Positions 29,597 to 59,329 of a DNA stretch of 64,000 nucleotides are shown in pieces. The stretch spans positions 1 to 64,000 of the forward strand of contig DASRFG010000035.1 in assembly GCA_035651655.1 (NCBI GenBank), in the 5' to 3' direction. Both the position numbers and the translations under genes were made by a program. Under the pieces are notes generated by a model that had not been told where the DNA came from, searched no databases, and saw nothing but the letters and a program-made list of their open reading frames with translations. Every line of letters starts with the position of its first letter. The first letter of the stretch is position 1. The stretch is from Terriglobales bacterium (lineage in GTDB: Bacteria; Acidobacteriota; Terriglobia; Terriglobales; Acidobacteriaceae).

Positions 29597-30072
29597 GATT
29601 TTCTCCAACCGTCGGCTTGACGGGCTCTCTCAACCAAAGCAGACGCCTGCAATTGTCGGAGGATGTGCGATTTTTTTTGTCCTCCTAACAAAACACACTT
29701 TTTGCGTTATTACGCAATACGGGCTCGGGACAATGGGTTTCGCTGTGAGTTAGGGAAAACGAATCGAGGGTCAAAGACGTCGAGGCGGGTTACGGAGTCT
29801 ATGGCGCGCCCGGAGGGACGATCTTAGAACTCTCGATCTGACCGGAAGCCGGCCAGACTTGACGCTTTTGCAGATCGGCCAGAGTTTAGAACCATCTAGT
29901 GAGGTTTTTGGACACCTTGAATCCCCGCCGTGTCGTGTTCATCAGCTTAGTGTCTGAATTTCGCGCGCCACGAAACCCCATTTTAACAAGCCGCGATGCG
30001 GCGGACCGGTCGTCGTGCGCCAGGAAGCGTTGTGATTTTCAATCGGCGGCGTCTGGGCTAGTACGCATTGTT
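29597..30072. other. Intergenic region containing the distal att site
   Basis: No gene is seen. The only notable element is the 19-base copy of the tRNA-Arg 3' end at 29801-29819. The sequence between 29820 and 30072 belongs to the predicted island and holds no visible integrase. Confidence 0.5.
29801..29819. repeat. Candidate att site (copy of tRNA-Arg 3' end)
   Basis: ATGGCGCGCCCGGAGGGAC is identical to 33168-33186, which is the 3' end of the tRNA-Arg(CCG) gene including its CCA. Such direct repeats form when an integrase inserts an element into a tRNA gene. The two copies bound about 3.35 kb. Confidence 0.85.
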
Positions 30073-32862
30073 TTAACCGACCTTTCCAAGAGGCAACTTC
30101 TTCTGCTTGATGAACATTTCTTCCAAGCATGACAAGCATAATTTGGAAACGTCATCGGCAGTTAGTTTCGCACTTCCACACTTTTTCCATGCACTCGGGC
30201 TCAGAAAAACCCGCGGCTTCCGTACCCAATAGCGAAAGGCGTCGCTTACGGCGCCTGAGAGAGGAGACAAATCCTCAATCGGCTTGATCCAGCCCGCTTC
30301 ACTGATAAAAACGTTCTTAACCTGATCTTTTCCGGCAGGGGGGATATCAATGAGAATTTCTCCGTCTACAAATCCGAGCTCCTCGCGAAATCCTCGCCTA
30401 ACCGAATCGCGGAATTTTTCGACGAAGCTGCCACGTAGGTCACATATGGCTTTGACGTAGTCGGCCGGGTTACCCGCATTGCCGGCGTTTATCGATTCAC
30501 GCATTAGTCCGTCGTACACTCGACGCGTCGCACTCTGAGGGATAGGGTCGTATTGCAACTCGAATCCCGGCCAATAAACAAGCTTGCGATCTAAACCCAA
30601 GAGACCATCAGCAATTGATTGAAGAAAGGTTCGTGTTTGCTCCGAAATTCCTGGGTTGTCCGTGAGCTTTTCTTTCAGCCAGATCAGTGCCGACTCATCG
30701 TCGAGTTCGCGGAAGTTGCCCAGGAGTTCGTCGAGCCTTTGGTCAACTCTTTCTGTGTCGGTTCCCAGGAAAGTCAAGACAAGGAATTGCAGCATAGCCG
30801 TAAGAGCTCGGGTCGTATGGTGCCAATAGACACACGAAAACATTTGATACCGCGCAATAAGCATGCTTTCGACTGGAAGTACCCCCTTCTCAGTAACCGC
30901 AATGGATGCCTGGGGAGGTTCGTGAGACTCGAAGCCCGGGAAAAAAGGAACAGCAGTCAATGACTGAAAAAAACGGTCGGTATCTATTCCCTCGGGGTAA
31001 CGAACACCACAATGATGGGCATCTCGAAGCAGGTAGTCAAGCTTGTCGGCATCAACGGCACTGTCCAGTATGCTATGCAGAATATTCACCTTGATCTGCT
31101 CGCTTTCGGCTGGATAAAGGACCGGAGCATCATCATCTTGCTCCGCCCGGGCGGACTTCTTGCTTGGTCTCAATATCTCAGCGACACGGCGAAGGAATGC
31201 GTCCGCCACCTGTTCCTTTGCCCAATCCAAACAGACCAATTCTCTAATTGCACGACGGTCCGTTTCAGCGGCGATCCGGCTGTCAGAGCCAAATCGTACG
31301 TCGCTATCCCCGTGGTCGGGATGTAGCAGTAAAATGGCATAGTCTACATGTGTACGCCCCTTAACCATCCCCTCCATCTCTTCCAAGTAGTGTCCAAAGG
31401 CCAGATGGCCTACATCGTGCAGCATCGCCGCCAGCAGTAGAGCATCAATGTCTTTCGAATCAATTGTCAGCCTCCAAAACGGATCCGACCGGTGAGAGTA
31501 AAGAGCTCTGACATAATCTGTTGTCGCAGCCAAGACTCCAGCCACGTGCTCCAACCGCACATGATTTGCCCCGGGATAAACCTGAGACACGGCACCGAGT
31601 TGCTTATGCCTGCGAAGACGCTGCACGGCCGAGGAATTAAAAACATGGTTTACGCGCTCGGTCCATGGCGCGTTTCCAGATTGCGGAAGTCTAAGCACCC
31701 GCTGTGGTATGGCCCGTAGCTCAGGAACCGCCTGCGCACCTCCGAATTCTGGCAGAACCTTCGCTAAATCCTGAACTACCGCATCGGCAGTGTCGTAGCA
31801 CTTGGGCTTATCAGGACCGTTTGGCCGCAATAAACGGTTGACGATCAATCGCACAAAAGCCAATGCAAATGTCGCGTTATCGTCGCGCGATGGGAACTTC
31901 TCTAAGAATTGATCCGCACGGGACTGGATGTCGCCTGGAAAGGCCTGCTCTTCACAATCCATATCGTAGAGTTTGAGTTTAGCCTTAAAGATGCGATTCA
32001 GTTCCCGAGCCAGCATCCACATATCGAGCCAGGGACAGTCCCATTCGAGTGATGGTAATTTATAGGCGACGCGTCTAGAAGTCTCGGTCTTTCGTTCCGT
32101 ACTATGCCCCCGCGGAGGCAAGGGTGGGTTACCCCGCGTAGAATAAACCAGATCGCCTCTAGCTGGATTCTTGACATAGCGGGCGTTTCCGATGTCAGTA
32201 AGCTTAACTACGCCGCTTTCACTAACTAGTAAGTTGTCAGATTTTATATCCCAATGAATCAGTGCCTGATCGTGTATGTAGGCCAATCCTTTGAAACATT
32301 GCGTCAGAATGTCCAGCACCGCTCTAAAATCGACCTCTTCTTGTGCAAGATACCTATTTAACGGTACCGCTCCATCGATCCACTCCATCAAAATTACCGA
32401 GAACACTACTTCCCGCCCAGATCGCTCACGGATATCTATCTTGCCTGGGCCGAGAACACGCGCAACGTTTTCGTGGGACAATGGCGCATGCTTGAGGTAC
32501 TCTTGAGCAGCATCCCGGATGTTCCACTCTACGCTCTGACTATCGCCTCCAAACAGTGATGGCCGCGGAATCTTTAACGCGTACTTAATAGCTGGCTGTT
32601 TGTTATTAACACACTGGACTATGACCCCGCCGCCGCCGACAATGATCCTGCCACCTCGCTCGACTCGCAGCGGAAACAAATCTCGAACGTAGATCTCGCG
32701 TGGTTTTTCCAGATCAACGAATTGGTCGCGGCTTGGGCCGAGACGTTTCTCGAGAAGAACGTCGTCGGCCCACAGGGATGTATCGCCTAGAATCGCGCTG
32801 AGGACAAGGCACAAGTCTTCACGTTCCACGCGCGATTTAGCTGGATCGTTTGCCGACATCAT
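30073..32862 (-). CDS. Protein-kinase-like domain fused to an SAMHD1/COG1078-type HD phosphohydrolase
   Basis: The protein has about 929 residues (counting from the ATG at 32862; a GTG at 32886 adds eight). Residues about 60-380 form a kinase-like domain: YALKIPRP (ATP-binding Lys about 97), HWDIKSDNLL (catalytic loop, Asp about 205, with Trp where Arg is usual) and LTDIGNAR (DFG as DIG). Residues about 405-700 match the COG1078 HD family: RLRRHKQLGAVSQVYPGANHVRLEHVAGVL, AAMLHDVGHLAFGHYLEEMEG and a late DADKLDYLLRD supply the metal-binding His-His-Asp-Asp set. Relatives hydrolyse dNTPs. The C-terminal 230 residues are unrecognised. It is soluble. Lone position on a tRNA island suggests a defence role by phosphorylation-controlled dNTP depletion; this is inference. 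Confidence 0.85.
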   Translation of the reverse strand: MMSANDPAKSRVEREDLCLVLSAILGDTSLWADDVLLEKRLGPSRDQFVDLEKPREIYVRDLFPLRVERGGRIIVGGGGVIVQCVNNKQPAIKYALKIPRPSLFGGDSQSVEWNIRDAAQEYLKHAPLSHENVARVLGPGKIDIRERSGREVVFSVILMEWIDGAVPLNRYLAQEEVDFRAVLDILTQCFKGLAYIHDQALIHWDIKSDNLLVSESGVVKLTDIGNARYVKNPARGDLVYSTRGNPPLPPRGHSTERKTETSRRVAYKLPSLEWDCPWLDMWMLARELNRIFKAKLKLYDMDCEEQAFPGDIQSRADQFLEKFPSRDDNATFALAFVRLIVNRLLRPNGPDKPKCYDTADAVVQDLAKVLPEFGGAQAVPELRAIPQRVLRLPQSGNAPWTERVNHVFNSSAVQRLRRHKQLGAVSQVYPGANHVRLEHVAGVLAATTDYVRALYSHRSDPFWRLTIDSKDIDALLLAAMLHDVGHLAFGHYLEEMEGMVKGRTHVDYAILLLHPDHGDSDVRFGSDSRIAAETDRRAIRELVCLDWAKEQVADAFLRRVAEILRPSKKSARAEQDDDAPVLYPAESEQIKVNILHSILDSAVDADKLDYLLRDAHHCGVRYPEGIDTDRFFQSLTAVPFFPGFESHEPPQASIAVTEKGVLPVESMLIARYQMFSCVYWHHTTRALTAMLQFLVLTFLGTDTERVDQRLDELLGNFRELDDESALIWLKEKLTDNPGISEQTRTFLQSIADGLLGLDRKLVYWPGFELQYDPIPQSATRRVYDGLMRESINAGNAGNPADYVKAICDLRGSFVEKFRDSVRRGFREELGFVDGEILIDIPPAGKDQVKNVFISEAGWIKPIEDLSPLSGAVSDAFRYWVRKPRVFLSPSAWKKCGSAKLTADDVSKLCLSCLEEMFIKQKKLPLGKVG

Positions 32863-33167
32863 AATAATCAGCGATCTCGGGAACACTTACGCCGCGGAAC
32901 CTATTCCAAAACTTGAACGATGTCAATAGGACAATAGTTGTGCCTAAAACGAGAAGATCTCAGAAGAGTTCTGGAGTTTAAAGAATTCAGACAGGCAAGT
33001 GAGAAAAGGCGGGTATTACCCCGCCACGAATGCTCCAAGCCGCTCCCCGACGTGTCGAAATCACGAACGATCCCCAGCTTTCGGACTGCGCCACGAACGG
33101 TGTAAGTCTTTATCCGAAATACAGAAACCCATTCGAGAGGATCTTTGAAAGGGCGAAAACAGAAGGA
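32863..33167. other. Non-coding end of the island
   Basis: These 305 bases separate the kinase-HD gene from tRNA-Arg. They probably contain its promoter and the attachment-site arm. No gene can be supported; the frames that cross this region also run through the tRNA gene. Confidence 0.4.
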
Positions 33168-33186
33168 ATGGCGCGCCCGGAGGGAC
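33168..33186. repeat. Candidate att site at the 3' end of tRNA-Arg
   Basis: This is the partner of 29801-29819, identical over 19 bases. Eighteen of these bases are the T-arm-to-CCA end of the tRNA gene, so insertion restored a functional tRNA. Confidence 0.85.
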
Positions 33187-33245
33187 TCGAACCCCCAACC
33201 TACAGCTCCGGAGGCTGGCGCTCTATCCAATTGAGCTACGGGCGC
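33169..33245 (-). tRNA. tRNA-Arg (anticodon CCG)
   Basis: The acceptor stem pairs GCGCCCG with CGGGCGC, the anticodon loop is CTCCGGA with anticodon CCG, and the T-loop is TTCGAGT. The 3' CCA is encoded. Its 3' end is the att core of the neighbouring island. Confidence 0.96.
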
Positions 33246-37173: not shown

Positions 37174-38280
37174 ATGGCCGATGCCAGTTTTTTCGACACA
37201 CCCACGGCAGCCTCGCTAAAGAAACACCGAATCGTCAGCAAATACTTCGGAGGCTGGGCGAACATAATTCTGCCTGAGGCCCTGCTCAAGGAAGGAAAGA
37301 TCATGTACGTGGATCTTTTCTGCGGGCCGGGACGATATCGGGATGGTACGCCCTCTACGCCGTTACTAATCCTCGATCATGTTGTTAAGACAGAGATGCT
37401 GCGGGATGTTACACAATTGTTTTTCAATGACGAAAATCCAGAGTTCGTCGAGACATTGAAAAAAGAAGTTGCAGGATTCCTTGGTATCGACAAACTCAAA
37501 CATTACCCGGTCTTTCGAACCAAGACCATCGGGCGAGAAATCATTCCAAGGATTGAGCGAGTTAAAGTCCCTACCTTGTTTTTCGCGGATCCTTGGGGAT
37601 ATGCGGGAATTTCGATTGACTTGATCGGGGCTTCAATCGCTCATTGGGGAAGTGATTTTCTTTTCTTCTTCAATTACAACCGATTCAATATGAACTTAGG
37701 CCGTGAGGCAATGAACGAGCCCATTAATGAATTTTTCCGTGCTGAGCGGGCCGAGGAATTGCGAAGAACCGTGGCGAATATGGCGCCCGCAGAAAGAGAA
37801 GAGGCAATCCTGAACTCGATGCAGGACGCAATCAAGAAGCTGGGAGCCAAAGTCGGAAAATTTACTTATCGGAGTAGGACGGGAACCAGGTCTACTCATC
37901 ATCTTTTGGGAGTTTCAAGGCATAAATACGGGACGGCATTGTTTAAGGAAATTAGCGCGAAAGAGGGCACAAGTTTTGACCATGATGTTCCTTCGCTAGA
38001 GCATGATCCGAGTGCAGACATTTACCAGCCCGGATTATTCTCGCCGCTTGCAGAGCTCGAAGAAGAATTGCTAGCAACTTATGCTGGAAAAGTATTAACG
38101 CCAGAGCAGATTTATCATCAGCATCACAACGGCAAGCCTTATATCCTAAAAAACTACCGGCAAGCTCTCCTTAACCTTGAAGAGCGTGGTGATGTACGCA
38201 TAGACCCTCCCAGAGCGGCGAGACCCAGGAGTGAAACTTTTCCCAATGACGCGCAAGTTACTTTTAGTCGAATAAGTTAA
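37174..38280 (+). CDS. tcmP: Three-Cys-motif partner protein (TcmP family)
   Basis: The 368-residue protein has the TcmP hallmarks: LKKHRIVSKYFGGWANIIL, MYVDLFCGPGRYRDG (a Rossmann-like, methyltransferase-type glycine loop), FFADPWGYAGIS, and FNMN. TcmP proteins are named for co-occurrence with DUF5131/Gp37-Gp68 proteins, which carry a C-x6-C-x2-C motif. The molecular role is unknown. Here the DUF5131 gene is convergent, ending at the same base, and a second TcmP follows. The loop suggests binding of SAM or a nucleotide; this is inference. An ATG at 37174 with a weak ribosome site is used. Confidence 0.88.
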   Translation: MADASFFDTPTAASLKKHRIVSKYFGGWANIILPEALLKEGKIMYVDLFCGPGRYRDGTPSTPLLILDHVVKTEMLRDVTQLFFNDENPEFVETLKKEVAGFLGIDKLKHYPVFRTKTIGREIIPRIERVKVPTLFFADPWGYAGISIDLIGASIAHWGSDFLFFFNYNRFNMNLGREAMNEPINEFFRAERAEELRRTVANMAPAEREEAILNSMQDAIKKLGAKVGKFTYRSRTGTRSTHHLLGVSRHKYGTALFKEISAKEGTSFDHDVPSLEHDPSADIYQPGLFSPLAELEEELLATYAGKVLTPEQIYHQHHNGKPYILKNYRQALLNLEERGDVRIDPPRAARPRSETFPNDAQVTFSRIS

Positions 38281-38489
38281 GCTGTGACGATGGTAAGAGA
38301 ACGCGGTTCGGATTTGGGGCGGCTTGAATGGCTGCTTTTAGAGGGCGACTTCCATAGTGGGACTTTGGCTTCGAAGGGTTTCGCCATTAAAAGGCGTTCC
38401 TTCTTGTCGGGCATAATGACTACAGCACGTTTGGGCATTTCATCGTAGGTTCGCCCGTGAAGTTTGCGCCCGGCAACGGATTTATGCAA
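38277..38489 (-). pseudogene. Frameshifted C-terminal end of the DUF5131 gene
   Basis: The frame reads SVAGRKLHGRTYDEMPKR, the usual end of DUF5131 proteins, but in another phase from the upstream 222 residues. The main frame ends KQWDGVA-stop within the same overlap, so one extra base near 38485 separates the parts. It is probably not translated as a separate protein. Confidence 0.65.
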
Positions 38490-39150
38490 CGCCGTCCCAT
38501 TGCTTAAAGAAGAAATCTACATCTTGGCCACGGCAAAGACTTAGAATTTTGTCTACCCACTGCGGTTCCATCGGTCGTGCTCCATTGCCGCTTTCTCCAC
38601 CGATGATGGCCCAATCGATACCGGACAGATTGAAATCCCCTAAGTCTTCGAGGAGCGGTTCAATAGATAGGAATTTCACGCTCGCGGTAGCAGTACGGAG
38701 GTGCTCAACTCGCGGTATGCCATATTTTTTATCCTCAACGCTGACACCCCACCATATGTGTCTTTGCTTGGCTGCAAAGCGGAGCTTAGTTGAAAGCAGG
38801 TCTCGCAGGCGCTCTGAGCGCTTGGTCAGCACTTGGTAGGTATGCCAATCGGCCTCGACCATAACCTGAACGACATCCTCGATGTAGGCGTCCGGAACGC
38901 CGGGCTGGAAGAGATCACTCATGCTGTTAACGAAAACAGTTCGAGGCCCGGACCAGCGAAAAGGCTCAGCAAGTTTTTCCGGGACGAGGCGGAGGTCGAA
39001 ACCCTGCTCGTACGGGTGCCCTTTGACCCCCCGGAAACGCTCTGCGAAGGTTTCAGCGTAGCAATGTTTGCAGCCGGGACTGATCTTCGTACATCCCCTG
39101 AGAGGGTTCCAGGTTGCATCTGTCCACTCGATCTTTGAATGTTCGCTCAT
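38482..39150 (-). CDS. DUF5131 (phage Gp37/Gp68-like) three-Cys protein, truncated by frameshift
   Basis: The protein starts IEWTDATWNPLRGCTKISPGCKHCYAE, with C-x6-C-x2-C typical of the family and similar to a radical-SAM-like cluster site. FVNSMSDLFQPGVPDAYI, FQVLTKRSERL and IGGESGNGARP follow. It lies between two TcmP genes, its usual partners. The frame ends prematurely at KQWDGVA; the missing C-terminus is in another frame at 38277-38489. The full family length is about 290 residues. The gene is nonfunctional, carries a sequencing error, or uses an unseen frameshift. Confidence 0.85.
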   Translation of the reverse strand: MSEHSKIEWTDATWNPLRGCTKISPGCKHCYAETFAERFRGVKGHPYEQGFDLRLVPEKLAEPFRWSGPRTVFVNSMSDLFQPGVPDAYIEDVVQVMVEADWHTYQVLTKRSERLRDLLSTKLRFAAKQRHIWWGVSVEDKKYGIPRVEHLRTATASVKFLSIEPLLEDLGDFNLSGIDWAIIGGESGNGARPMEPQWVDKILSLCRGQDVDFFFKQWDGVA

Positions 39151-39203
39151 CCTGGCTGCCTTTCATACTACCAATGCTCGGCGTTAAGTAAAGGGCTGTG
39201 TCA

Positions 39204-39500
39204 TCAAACCTGCTTATTGAGAAGGCTCATAATCCGTTGCCTCGTTATGACTCCCGCCGGACCATCGCGCTTGCCTTCGGCCCATCGTGTGACCTGATTA
39301 CGCCTGATGCGAATGCTCCACTGGGGCACGATAGGTAGCGATGACAACTCAGTCATAGGGCCCACTTCGGAGTCATCTTGCCCGCCCGGAACTTGCAATG
39401 GCAACGCAACGGCTTCGTAAAACGATCCCGCTTGTATCTCAATGTCACACGGGATCCTTGGTGTCAGTAAAGGAGACTCTGCAGCGGTTATTGGGAGCAT
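39204..39500 (-). CDS. Hypothetical protein
   Basis: A 98-residue frame on the same strand as the DUF5131 gene, 53 bases upstream. It ends with a basic helix (NQVTRWAEGKRDGPAGVITRQRIMSLL) that could contact nucleic acid. An AGG lies six bases before the ATG. No family is recognised and the N-terminus looks low in structure. It could be spurious. Confidence 0.3.
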   Translation of the reverse strand: MLPITAAESPLLTPRIPCDIEIQAGSFYEAVALPLQVPGGQDDSEVGPMTELSSLPIVPQWSIRIRRNQVTRWAEGKRDGPAGVITRQRIMSLLNKQV

Positions 39501-39605
39501 TATACCTATATTCGCCTTTTATTCGCCTAATTAAGTGGGCGCTTTGAATCCGAAGCGGTGCTACAGTGGCATTGACGAGACGGGCTTTCTGAGAAAGTCA
39601 GGACT

Positions 39606-40487
39606 CTGACCCAACAAACCATTTTTGGCGGCCCATGGACCCAGCAAAAGCTGGAAGTGCTGAGCAGGTATCTCTCCGCCTACACGAATATCTTCACAAA
39701 AAACGCCAAGGCTCAGTTCTATACAACCTGTTACGTTGACGCTTTCGCCGGTACCGGCGTGATCAGGCGACCTGCGCTCGGCGGATTTGCTACCTTTTTC
39801 CCCGAACTTGAGAAAGCGGAAGAGAAGTTCAGAAAGGGAAGCGTGCGACGAGCGCTTGAGGTCGAGCCTCCTTTCGACAAATATGTGTTTATCGAAAAGA
39901 GCGCGAAGAAGTGCAAAAAGCTGGAAGCTGTCGCAGCAGAGTTTCAGCAGAAGAAGGTTGATGTCATCAACGAAGATGCCAATAATGCACTTCTGAAATG
40001 GTGCTCAAATTTAAATACCCAACGCGAGCGGGCGGTTGTTTTCCTCGATCCGTTCGGCGCGTCCGTGGAATGGAAGGTCATCTCGGCCCTAGCAACGACT
40101 CGCGCTGTGGATCTTTGGATACTGTTCCCGTATTCAGCGGTGAACCGGATGCTGATGCGGAATCGCAAGCCGCAAGGGGCCCTGCCGGAACGCTTGACGA
40201 AGGTTTTTGGTACAGCGGATTGGGAGAAATTCTTCTATTCGAGCTGGAAGTTTCGGTCATTGTTGAGTGAAACGCATGTCGAGGAGGATCACAAGTCAGT
40301 GGATCATCGCGAGATTATTGGTTTCTTCATGGCCCGGCTTCGTAAGGAATTTGAGGCGGTGGCGGATCCGAAGCCCCTTCACAATTCCAGAGGGTCACTG
40401 CTCTTCATGCTGATTTTCGCAGCCGGCAATGCGGCAAGCGCGAAGACGGGAATAAAAATCGCGAACAGCATTAAATTCGACTACTGA
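39606..40487 (+). CDS. tcmP: Second TcmP-family protein (three-Cys-motif partner)
   Basis: The sequence FGGPWTQQKLEVLSRYLSAYTNIF, CYVDAFAGTGVIRR, VFIEKSAKK and VVFLDPFGASVEW matches the other TcmP branch. The FGGPWT start lies upstream of the first GTG at 39657, so a CTG at 39606 is preferred, with GAGAAAG upstream. It is 293 residues long, while the other TcmP at 37174 is longer. Having two TcmP types around one DUF5131 gene suggests one larger system or two stacked copies. A start mutation is also possible. Confidence 0.8.
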   Translation: MTQQTIFGGPWTQQKLEVLSRYLSAYTNIFTKNAKAQFYTTCYVDAFAGTGVIRRPALGGFATFFPELEKAEEKFRKGSVRRALEVEPPFDKYVFIEKSAKKCKKLEAVAAEFQQKKVDVINEDANNALLKWCSNLNTQRERAVVFLDPFGASVEWKVISALATTRAVDLWILFPYSAVNRMLMRNRKPQGALPERLTKVFGTADWEKFFYSSWKFRSLLSETHVEEDHKSVDHREIIGFFMARLRKEFEAVADPKPLHNSRGSLLFMLIFAAGNAASAKTGIKIANSIKFDY

Positions 40488-48746: not shown

Positions 48747-50559
48747 AACCTTGCCCCACAGGAAAACTTACTCGTGTTGACGCGTTTACTCGGCCGTAGT
48801 CGGGAGTCACAGTCTGGTCGAATGAGGGGGTCGCGTTGAAACCGAGGAGATACTTGATTGAGTAAGTCGAATCATCAAAAGCAATCCCATGATCCGCAGA
48901 ACCGAAAATCAGGCCGGAAGAGTCTACTGCAAAGGGGGTTTCCACAAATGGCGAGGGAGAGATTTGTGTTCTAGGGGGAATCGTACCGAGGGCCGGTGCC
49001 GCGTTGATAAAGCCCCCGGTGTTCCCATCGGAGACGACGATGATGGGCACTCCAAACACGCCAACTGCATATATACGGGTACCGTCCGGGCTGAAGATGA
49101 ATCCGCTGATAAATCCGGCAGCCGGGACTAGAGTTAACGGTTGAAGTTGATCGTTGTACATGGCCAGGCCCAATCCGTCGTCCAAGATCAAGAAGCGGGA
49201 ACCATCTGGATTAGCTGCTACTCCATAGATGAAACCAGGAAAGCTAACCGCAGGCCCAAATGTTCGCTTAGCAAAATCATAAACGGCTGCCTTAGCAGGT
49301 CCGCCACAGTCTGCAATGACTATCTTCGTGCCGTTAGCACTTGCCCCAGCAAAGCAGGGGTCAATGCCAGGTGGCGGGGCTATTGCCGCTATCGTGTTCT
49401 TCCCGGGATCCCAAATCGCAAGCCTCCACTGACCGCCATTCAATCCGATCAAATGGATAACGATCGTGCCATCTGACATAGGGTACAGTTCCCTAGAACC
49501 GTAACCGGCTCCCGACAGGCGGGGCAATTTCCAACGCTGTACAACCTGCAAGGTGGTTGGATTTATGGCAGTGATTTGTTGTGCATCACTGCCGACCAGC
49601 AGTTTGCTTCCATCATTAGTCAGTGCTAACCCACGCGGGCTCATGACAGGGATGCTCTTCATGATCTGCCGAGTTGATCTGGAGACGACATCGACACGAT
49701 TCAAGAAAAAATCACTCGAAAAAATCAATTGATGGGCGGCATCGTAGACAATTGACTGTGGCGTATCATCCGTTCTTAGGTAATCGCTGCGATTATTTGG
49801 CAGAGTCCCTGGGGGTGGCGCAACTTCTAGAGCCATGACCACATTTCCCGACGGAGCGGACGCTGCAGGAGTGGCTACGACGTTAATTGGTAGGTTTTGA
49901 ATCCATTGATTGTAGGGGGAGGCCATCAGGTGCAGTGTTGTCGAGCCGCCAGGAACGATTGGATTGGGAGAAAAATTCGCAGTAACGCCAGATGGCAAAC
50001 CTTCCACGGAGAAATTCAGCAGATAATTTGACGGGCCTTGTGTCTGAAACTGGACCGGCACGCTGGACCCAATTCTCGTAACAACTTCGAGCACGGCAGG
50101 CTGGATGAGCGCGAAATTCGGCAATGCGCCGACTCCGACACTTACTGTTGCTGATTCACTTAAGGTCCCACTCGCACCCTTCAGCATGAAAGAATAATTG
50201 CCACTCGCGAGCGAATTAGACGCCGTCAGAGTCACTGTTTGGGGAGAGTTTTGGACTGAGAAAGATAACGGATCTGCGCTCAGGCCTGACGGCAGCCCGG
50301 AAAGTGTTATTGAAACCGCTCCATGAAAGCCGTTCTGAGGAGTAACGGATACCTGGACTAGGGCAGTTGTACCCGGGGCGACCGCAGGACTAGACGGCAA
50401 TATCGTAATAGAGAACGATGGCACTGCTGGCGGCGTTGGATTGGACGATCCGCCACCTCCACCGCACGCGTACACAACAAAAGAAAGCGCGACCAGTGTG
50501 GCGGGCGCAAGCAGATTAGCAACCGATCGTTGAAGCCGACCTTTGACTTCCTGTCTCAC
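48685..50559 (-). CDS. Large secreted Ig-like/propeller lipoprotein, proximal part of a frameshifted gene
   Basis: The GTG at 50559 has GGAG eight bases upstream. A lipoprotein signal (LVALSFVVYACGGGG) leads to Ig-like domains (SFSITILPSSPAVAPGTTALVQVSVTPQNGFHGAVSITLSGLPSGLS), then a beta-propeller-like region (QSIVYDAAHQLIFSSDFFLNRVDVVSR). It ends in FGFIPDVWFGAVAWHSS, off the expected continuation. With the frame corrected near 48703-48720, the protein would continue RGTQAALN and run to 47073, about 1160 residues. It may be a surface protein of glycan or protein binding. Confidence 0.75.
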   Translation of the reverse strand: MRQEVKGRLQRSVANLLAPATLVALSFVVYACGGGGGSSNPTPPAVPSFSITILPSSPAVAPGTTALVQVSVTPQNGFHGAVSITLSGLPSGLSADPLSFSVQNSPQTVTLTASNSLASGNYSFMLKGASGTLSESATVSVGVGALPNFALIQPAVLEVVTRIGSSVPVQFQTQGPSNYLLNFSVEGLPSGVTANFSPNPIVPGGSTTLHLMASPYNQWIQNLPINVVATPAASAPSGNVVMALEVAPPPGTLPNNRSDYLRTDDTPQSIVYDAAHQLIFSSDFFLNRVDVVSRSTRQIMKSIPVMSPRGLALTNDGSKLLVGSDAQQITAINPTTLQVVQRWKLPRLSGAGYGSRELYPMSDGTIVIHLIGLNGGQWRLAIWDPGKNTIAAIAPPPGIDPCFAGASANGTKIVIADCGGPAKAAVYDFAKRTFGPAVSFPGFIYGVAANPDGSRFLILDDGLGLAMYNDQLQPLTLVPAAGFISGFIFSPDGTRIYAVGVFGVPIIVVSDGNTGGFINAAPALGTIPPRTQISPSPFVETPFAVDSSGLIFGSADHGIAFDDSTYSIKYLLGFNATPSFDQTVTPDYGRVNASTRVSFPVGQGFGFIPDVWFGAVAWHSSCAE

Positions 50560-58530: not shown

Positions 58531-58606
<76 letters not shown>

Positions 58607-58818
58607 TCTAACCAATTCATTAAGCACCAGCCTCCGCAAGCTGCCTACCCTCGGCTGTTGGGCGCTTGCTCGTGCTGCTGCACATCATGGCTCTATCCGC
58701 CGGAAGCGATGTTCAAGGGATCGCCCGCAGGCTATTGCTCAGAAACATCGTCCAACAACAAGTGAAGCTGGTTAAGTACTCTTGAATTGTCAAGTGGCGG
58801 TGGCAACCTTGCTTCAGG

Positions 58819-59259
58819 TCACACCCGGAGAATCATGACTTCGGTCGCCTTGATGAGAGCTGCGGCGGTCTGCCCAGGCTTCAGATTCATTTCGCGGGCC
58901 GAGCTTGCGGTGATAATCGAGGTGATTTGCTGATCGCCGATAGATAGTGTTACCTCCGCCAGCAATCCGCTGATGCGGACCCCGTGGATTCGACCTACTA
59001 GCTGGTTTCTTCCACTCACACTCCGAACAAGACGGTCTCGTTCTGGTTGCGTTGTCGCTCTGGTCCGAAACAGGAAGCGGTCAACCTCACTTTGCGGAAT
59101 GCGGTGGTGGCCCCCGGCCGTCTTAACACTCCGAATTTTGCGCTTATAAATCCACTGCTTGATCGTGGGAAAGCTTATCCGAAGTTCCAAAGCTGCCTCG
59201 CGCAGCTTTAGCAACTCGCCGTTCTTACCTCTCGGGGGTCGGCTCTTAGGTTTAGGCAT
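58819..59259 (-). CDS. Helix-turn-helix/TOBE (molybdate-type) regulator
   Basis: The 146-residue protein joins an excisionase/MerR-type helix-turn-helix (LKLREAALELRISFPTIKQWIYKRKIRSVKTAGGHHRIPQSEVDRFL) to a TOBE domain (NQLVGRIHGVRISGLLAEVTLSIGDQQITSIITASSAREM). TOBE domains bind molybdate or tungstate, so it may sense oxyanions. The start at 59259 drops a poorly matched N-terminus of 13 residues. It faces the TonB receptor across a short divergent region with an inverted repeat, a likely operator. Confidence 0.85.
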   Translation of the reverse strand: MPKPKSRPPRGKNGELLKLREAALELRISFPTIKQWIYKRKIRSVKTAGGHHRIPQSEVDRFLFRTRATTQPERDRLVRSVSGRNQLVGRIHGVRISGLLAEVTLSIGDQQITSIITASSAREMNLKPGQTAAALIKATEVMILRV

Positions 59260-59329
59260 TTGAACAGGAATCCTAGTGTCAGGTCTTGGGTTCGTCAATT
59301 AATCCGCATTCTCCCGCTGTCTGTGTATC

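What the first reader, a model, noticed from the sequence alone, without database searches (positions are those of the whole stretch)
29801..33245. One-gene tRNA-Arg island encoding a kinase-HD phosphohydrolase fusion
A 19-base copy of the 3' end of tRNA-Arg(CCG) recurs 3.35 kb away, and the only gene between the copies is a fusion of a Ser/Thr-kinase-like domain and a COG1078/SAMHD1-type HD domain. Seen directly: the repeat, the tRNA, the kinase motifs (ALK, HWDIKSDN, DIG) and the HD set (LEH, LHD, DADKLD). Known: integrases use tRNA 3' ends, and dNTP triphosphohydrolases deplete dNTPs to stop phages. Inferred: a cargo defence gene whose HD activity is gated by phosphorylation. I know of no described system with this exact fusion, but I could not search.
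Basis: partly seen in the sequence, partly recalled or inferred. Interest (0 to 1): 0.88.

Follow-up and report, generated by a model that had tools for sequence, protein, structure and literature searches.

The report
Island-borne kinase fused to nucleotide hydrolase
A small stretch beside a transfer-RNA gene carries one gene, a protein kinase joined to a SAMHD1-like nucleotide-destroying domain; its nearest relative found rides in a complete mobile island with DNA-restriction genes, so it is probably an undescribed anti-virus protein, though nobody has tested it.

Summary
A 19-base exact copy of the tRNA-Arg(CCG) 3' end lies 3.37 kb from the tRNA, with no third copy in the genome. The window's two other tRNAs have no such copy. 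The only credible gene between is an intact kinase-HD fusion (937 aa; 929 from an inner ATG).

New evidence: the fusion is a sparse family, found in 7 genomes of bacteria and archaea. The nearest relative found (G044) sits in a 21.5-kb island bounded by a perfect 49-bp tRNA-Ala repeat. That island holds an integrase beside the tRNA, a type III methyltransferase gene and candidate defence genes. This supports mobile, defence-type cargo.

Against: the window island has no integrase, and no both-flank empty site could be shown. Only the G044 setting is clearly defence-type. The direction of control is open: kinase catalytic residues D213, K215, N218 and D231 are kept in 7 of 7, the HD set in 6 of 7. 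No library model covering the whole protein was found, and ten paper searches listed no description. I rate it a new variant of a known kind; function is inferred, not shown.

The parts
29801..29819 (+). Distal 19-bp copy of the tRNA-Arg(CCG) 3' end (putative att copy)
   Evidence: exact, same orientation as the end in the tRNA; no third copy of the 18-mer within 1 mismatch in the genome
33168..33186 (+). Proximal copy: the 3' end of the tRNA-Arg(CCG) gene itself plus one base
33169..33245 (-). tRNA-Arg, anticodon CCG, CCA encoded
   Evidence: ARAGORN; sequence
30073..32886 (-). Kinase-HD fusion gene, 937 aa from GTG (929 aa from an inner ATG)
   Evidence: open frame; Pfam Pkinase, HD, HD_assoc_2
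32158..32640 (-). Kinase stretch matched by Pfam, residues 83-243; active-site residues K105, D213, K215, N218, D231
   Evidence: PF00069 4e-16; residues across 7 fusions
30745..31686 (-). COG1078/SAMHD1-type HD region, about residues 401-714; H447, H490-D491, H499, D614
Evidence: PF01966 residues 444-526 and PF19276 residues 661-709; PDB 2o6i, 2q14, 2hek and SAMHD1 matches; residues across 7 fusions.

Best explanation
A minimal (decayed or helper-dependent) island at tRNA-Arg(CCG) whose cargo is a one-protein immune sensor-effector: a Ser/Thr-type kinase joined to a SAMHD1-type HD phosphohydrolase. Most likely working (inferred): infection is sensed by the N-terminal or kinase part; kinase dimerisation and trans-phosphorylation switch on the HD domain, much as kinase dimerisation switches on the RNase of IRE1 (recalled); the HD domain then breaks dNTPs down to deoxynucleosides and stops DNA synthesis. 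Shown here: the repeat, the intact fusion, its recurrence, the near-grouping of the fused HD domains, and the tRNA-island setting of the G044 relative. Inferred: mobility of this copy, the defence role, the direction of control. My estimates: real fusion family 0.97; tRNA-linked acquisition of this copy 0.75; defence role 0.6; kinase gates HD, given defence, 0.6.
For: Repeat specific to this tRNA. Fusion in 7 distinct genomes. All seven fused HD domains fall in one 9-row set (95/88) of a 60-row tree, and 0 of 500 label shuffles are as clustered. G044 relative inside a 21,483-bp island with a 49-bp tRNA-Ala repeat, an integrase beside the tRNA, two DNA methylase genes (one type III by PADLOC, 1.2e-163), and GNAT-PIN and ASCH genes overlapping the fusion operon that match candidate defence system PDC-M11. 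Same use of tRNA-Arg ends in the class: 48-bp copy, 36 kb away, with an integrase between, in G086; 25-bp relic in G003. Both catalytic sets intact in the window protein. A nucleoside hydrolase gene next but one to the fusion in L041.
Against: No integrase in the window island, and only 19 bp of identity. No both-flank empty site. Island GC of 51.5% is not an outlier: 148 of 1079 stretches elsewhere in the window are as low. L042 has a broken HD site and housekeeping neighbours by eye. In the tree the fusions are not strictly one side of a branch (2 changes; 1% of 200 bootstrap trees with one), and several branches are long. No fused copy turned up in plasmid, phage or viral collections. A defence-type setting is clear in only 1 of 7 loci. 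No functional data exist.
Confidence: 0.42

Rival explanations
1. Reversed wiring: the HD domain is a nucleotide sensor and the kinase is the effector. A change in dNTPs during infection relieves the kinase, which phosphorylates host or phage proteins and halts growth, as kinase-based defences do (Stk2, PD-T4-6; recalled).
For: Kinase D213, K215, N218 and D231 are kept in 7 of 7 fusions, while L042 has lost HD residues H490, H499 and D614; the His after HDxG is Gln in 5 of 7. All 25 PADLOC models shown lie on the kinase stretch, many of them PD-T4-6.
Against: 6 of 7 keep H447, H490, D491, H499 and D614, more than ligand binding alone should need.
Confidence: 0.25
2. Nucleotide housekeeping: the protein adjusts dNTP pools in normal growth or stress and is merely accessory, with no role against phages.
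For: L042 lies among housekeeping genes by eye; many standalone HD relatives of the same type exist in the phylum, and two of those nearest the fusions lie among housekeeping genes.
Against: Very patchy distribution: fused in 2 of 396 phylum genomes (lower bound) and 2 of 100 relatives, own included, by the rows listed; inside a tRNA island in G044.
Confidence: 0.15
3. The 19-bp copy is a relic of an older, larger or different insertion, and the present gene came in by another route, so the 3.35-kb piece was never a unit.
For: No integrase, short identity block. The tRNA-Arg(CCG) of G003 has a 25-bp copy only 120 bp away, too little room for a gene, so relics without cargo occur.
Against: The gene fills the space between the copies, and its nearest relative found is cargo of a tRNA island.
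Confidence: 0.2

Closest known systems
SAMHD1/COG1078-type HD phosphohydrolases (PDB 2o6i/3irh/4lrl, 2q14, 2hek; SAMHD1 entries)
   Same: HD and HD_assoc_2 regions and the catalytic His/Asp set
   Different: Those chains match only the HD half; here a kinase is fused in front
Defence kinases PD-T4-6, Stk2, MAD6
   Same: Ser/Thr-type kinase domain matched by their PADLOC models
   Different: Matches stop at the kinase stretch; MAD6 scores 30 bits against a cut-off of 460 in NCBIfam; the HD half is extra
Clover (CloA/CloB) and defence dGTPases (PMC12265719; passages read)
   Same: An HD dNTPase as the effector of anti-phage defence under a control signal
   Different: Control there is by nucleotide signals with a separate NTase gene (CloB); here a kinase is in the same chain and there is no partner gene between the repeats. 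The word kinase does not occur in that paper's main text
tRNA-integrated genomic islands (TIGER/Islander; PMC12424338, passages read)
   Same: A direct copy of the tRNA 3' end bounds the cargo; G044 has every part tested here
   Different: The window island has one gene and no integrase; the paper mentions use of exogenous helper integrases only as a possibility for one recombinase group
IRE1/RNase L (kinase-driven RNase; recalled, with IRE1's kinase-KEN layout seen in a passage of PMC3710099)
   Same: Kinase domain in front of a nucleotide- or RNA-destroying enzyme in one chain
   Different: Enzyme family differs; the likeness of working is a proposal, not a relation

Membership tests
tRNA-integrated genomic island (this window) | direct copy of the tRNA 3' end at the far border | tested here: met
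   19 bp exact, 18-mer only twice in the genome within 1 mismatch
tRNA-integrated genomic island (this window) | integrase gene inside | tested here: not met
   one credible gene between the copies; no integrase-like ORF of 100 aa or more by phmmer with the G044 integrase
tRNA-integrated genomic island (this window) | empty site in relatives | tested here: inconclusive
   G004 and G010 keep LDH-tRNA-Arg without the fusion, but the left-flank genes lie elsewhere in the 13 of 14 relatives where one of them was found; no same-genus genome was listed
tRNA-integrated genomic island (G044 relative) | tRNA repeat, integrase beside the tRNA, cargo between | tested here: met
   49-bp repeat, PF00589, fusion between
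SAMHD1/COG1078-type HD phosphohydrolase | HD family match and catalytic His/Asp residues | tested here: met
   PF01966 and PF19276 above cut-off; H447, H490, D491, H499, D614 present
SAMHD1/COG1078-type HD phosphohydrolase | dNTP triphosphohydrolase activity | not testable with these tools
   needs the purified protein
Defence kinases (PD-T4-6, Stk2, MAD6) | kinase domain with active-site residues | tested here: met
Defence kinases (PD-T4-6, Stk2, MAD6) | whole-protein match to the family model | tested here: not met
   all 25 PADLOC models shown of 34 stop at the kinase stretch; MAD6 30 bits against 460; 9 PADLOC matches were not shown
Clover | separate nucleotidyltransferase partner (CloB) | tested here: not met
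   no second credible gene between the repeats
Anti-phage defence system | protects cells from phage | not testable with these tools
   needs an infection assay

The most novel reading that the evidence does not exclude
An undescribed one-protein immune family of bacteria and archaea: a kinase-coupled SAMHD1-like dNTPase built on the IRE1/RNase L plan, carried between tRNA genes by islands and able to persist as a one-gene, integrase-less unit.
Probability: 0.36. Interest if true: 0.78.

Novelty: new variant of a known kind. Interest (0 to 1): 0.6.

Why it matters
Bacterial dNTPase defences and defence kinases are known as separate things. One chain that joins them would be a compact sensor-effector and a prokaryotic parallel to SAMHD1, whose human form is itself controlled by phosphorylation (recalled). 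The two active sites are separable, so the direction of control can be tested with two point-mutant forms. The G044 island shows the gene lodged with restriction-modification-type genes in a complete tRNA island.

Tried and rejected
Empty site: failed. The left-flank response-regulator-like gene was found in 13 of 14 relatives, on another contig than the best tRNA match in 11 and about 1 Mb from it in the two single-contig genomes G016 and G031; flanking genes were mapped on the fetched stretches. Different contigs in fragmented assemblies do not by themselves exclude adjacency.

Structure: AlphaFold with 5 rows gave mean pLDDT 43.6 and pTM 0.31, so no fold search was run.

Kinase-HD split pair: the two standalone HD rows that fall among the fusions (L177, L178) have housekeeping-type neighbours and no kinase that I recognised by eye; no family search was run on those neighbours.

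Relatives: the protein alone found none in genome contigs (9 stretches). My filter missed the kinase of L042, which Pfam found. Pfam at 0.01 showed no HD family for L041 and only HD_assoc_2 for L042; the alignments cover the HD region of both. In L041 column 105 (kinase Lys) is Gly in my alignment, though a Lys lies nearby (CAVKYVF), and HD column 617 is Ala. Viral contigs: none of 98 stretches, then 4 matches on the kinase half only. Plasmids and phages: 0 records with 80% of the query in one place; the listed hits are HD-only or, for some phage records, kinase-half only, and the lower-ranked records were not listed. Searches scored at most two candidates per genome, and at most eight while listing only part of its matches, so their counts of fusions are lower bounds. 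The standalone rows of the tree are a selection: good matches to the fused HD profile among loci already fetched.
Full report
What is there. tRNA-Arg(CCG) lies at 33169-33245 on the minus strand. Its last 18 bases, encoded CCA included, plus one base beyond recur exactly at 29801-29819 in the same orientation, 3,367 bp away. Within 2 mismatches the 18-mer has no third place in the window and none in 100 shuffles; within 1 mismatch it has none elsewhere in the 4.07-Mb assembly. The window's two other tRNAs have no copy of their 3' ends (longest shared k-mer 12). The only credible gene between the copies is 30073-32886 minus, 937 aa (929 from an inner ATG). Pfam gives Pkinase, HD and HD_assoc_2, each above cut-off. 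In the PDB the best matches of the HD half are 2o6i, 2q14, 2hek and SAMHD1 chains; the kinase half matches kinases such as PknA.

Is the piece foreign? Flanking 1-kb stretches have 56-61% GC on the left and about 57-58% on the right. The island has 51.5%, and the gene's GC3 is 0.53 against 0.60-0.71 in most neighbours and 0.50 in one. But 148 of 1079 equally long stretches elsewhere in the window are as low, so composition proves little. The LDH gene beside the tRNA is also beside tRNA-Arg in G004 and G010; neither has the fusion there, and their further neighbours differ. Of 100 genomes (own included), 12 hold the 18-mer within one mismatch; the exact 18-mer occurs twice in the window's genome and once each in G004 and G041. 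The left-flank gene tested lies elsewhere in the 13 of 14 relatives that have it, and no same-genus genome appeared, so a strict empty site could not be shown.

Precedents at tRNA-Arg. In G003 the tRNA-Arg(CCG) has a 25-bp copy of its 3' end 120 bp away, too little room for a gene. In G086 a tRNA-Arg(TCT), whose 18-base end differs from the window's by one base, has a 48-bp copy 36 kb away. A phage-type integrase lies between (PF00589 1.4e-15). So tRNA-Arg ends of this kind are used for integration in this class.

The fusion is a family. It was found in seven distinct genomes: the window; G044, same family, other genus; L039, Acidobacteria bacterium Ga0074141, which agrees with G274 and G482 in contig length and place and is counted once; L040, uncultured bacterium LaPlata bin-2000; L041, a Thermoplasmata archaeon; L042, bacterium Zod_Metabat.1143; and G1008, in the phylum of L041. 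G274 is 'same phylum' as the window, so the window is probably from Acidobacteriota (inference). The fusion is rare: 2 of 396 genomes of the phylum, 1 of 387, 2 of 389 and 1 of 10 in three other groups, the query genome counted in each; the first three are lower bounds. In a tree of 60 HD domains all seven fused ones fall in a 9-row set (support 95/88) with two standalone rows. None of 500 label shuffles is as clustered, but the group needs two changes, only 1% of 200 bootstrap trees give one, and several branches are long.

The telling relative. In G044, the nearest fused relative by BLAST score and tree path, the gene lies between a tRNA-Ala(GGC) and a perfect 49-bp copy of its 3' half (48761-48809 and 70244-70292), 21,483 bp apart. 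Beside the tRNA is an integrase (PF00589 1e-23; PHROG integrase 8e-58), then an AAA gene with primase/helicase relatives. Two DNA methylase genes follow beyond the fusion, one matching a PADLOC type III methyltransferase at 1.2e-163. The ORF after them I read as a restriction subunit from place and helicase-like motifs, but Pfam did not confirm it. Overlapping the end of the fusion and in the same direction are a GNAT-PIN gene and an ASCH gene that match the candidate defence system PDC-M11 (8.7e-10 and 2.7e-24). The element has 54.8% GC against 58-59% on both sides. The fusion is therefore cargo of a complete tRNA island with defence-type genes.

Other neighbourhoods. G1008: an overlapping upstream gene without a family, a downstream gene with only a sub-threshold HSDR_N match (0.044), and ThiF and prokaryotic-E2 genes about 7 kb away with an ISL3 transposase between. 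L041: a 275-aa ORF without a significant family, then a nucleoside hydrolase (1.5e-60), all in the direction of the fusion. On the other strand follow a second HD protein (sub-threshold HD, 0.0028), a ParA-like gene matching PDC-M28B and a methyltransferase-like gene. L040: the next gene has only a sub-threshold match to nucleoside deoxyribosyltransferase (0.03). L042: housekeeping neighbours by eye. L039: 4.9-kb contig, too short. So a defence-type mobile setting is clear in 1 of 7 (G044), probable in the window, suggestive in G1008 and L041, and absent or unknown in the other three.

How it may work. Across the seven, kinase residues D213, K215, N218 and D231 are kept in 7 and K105 in 6 (L041 unaligned there). 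HD residues H447 and D491 are kept in 7; H490, H499 and D614 in 6, all three lost in L042; the His after HDxG is Gln in 5 of 7. I favour a kinase-controlled dNTPase because 6 of 7 keep the main active-site residues of both halves (with the L041 Lys caveat), and because in L041 a nucleoside hydrolase lies close by, which could consume the deoxynucleosides a triphosphohydrolase releases (inference). L042 shows that the kinase can be kept without HD chemistry, so an HD sensor driving a kinase effector stays a serious rival.

Known or new. PADLOC gave 34 matches; the 25 shown all lie on the kinase stretch. NCBIfam gave five kinase matches, all far below cut-off. Ten paper searches listed no paper whose title or abstract start describes a kinase-HD fusion of this kind; of three papers I read passages only (PMC12265719; PMC12424338; PMC3710099). 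The library lacks most subscription papers. The halves are known; the union and its island carriage appear undescribed. I rate it a new variant of a known kind, interest 0.6.

Noticed in passing
window 37174-40487: Two three-Cys-motif partner (TcmP) genes (TIGR04474, 5e-42 and 9e-53) flank a gene with a below-cut-off match to radical SAM mobile pair protein A (TIGR04471, 66 bits against 355), in a stretch of low GC; possibly another mobile or conflict cassette.
   Followed up: partly
window 58531-59298: A small gene 58819-59298 (minus) with a PHROG excisionase/regulator match (7.6e-8) lies just downstream of tRNA-Lys(CTT); no copy of that tRNA's 3' end was found in the window.
   Followed up: partly
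L253/L254 (G086:C38 39443 and 75511): A 36-kb island-like stretch between a tRNA-Arg(TCT) and a 48-bp copy of its 3' end, with an integrase inside; cargo not studied.
   Followed up: partly
L255 (G003:C62:917-1113): 25-bp copy of the tRNA-Arg(CCG) 3' end only 120 bp from the tRNA: a relic or emptied site at the tRNA used in the window.
   Followed up: partly
L033:2415-3947 (Klebsiella phage ST11-VIM1phi8.3 record): A standalone HD-domain gene of the same broad type, two genes from the annotated integrase in a phage record.
   Followed up: no
L035:3965-6442 and L187 (G167): Two longer HD proteins (825 and 850 aa, one on a Rhizobium plasmid) group together at full support; in the 825-aa one the HD matches end by residue 429, so nearly half the chain has no Pfam family at 0.01.
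   Followed up: no
L036:14652-16235: In the G044 island a DNA methylase carries a Schlafen AlbA_2 domain at its C-terminal end (3.9e-15).
   Followed up: no
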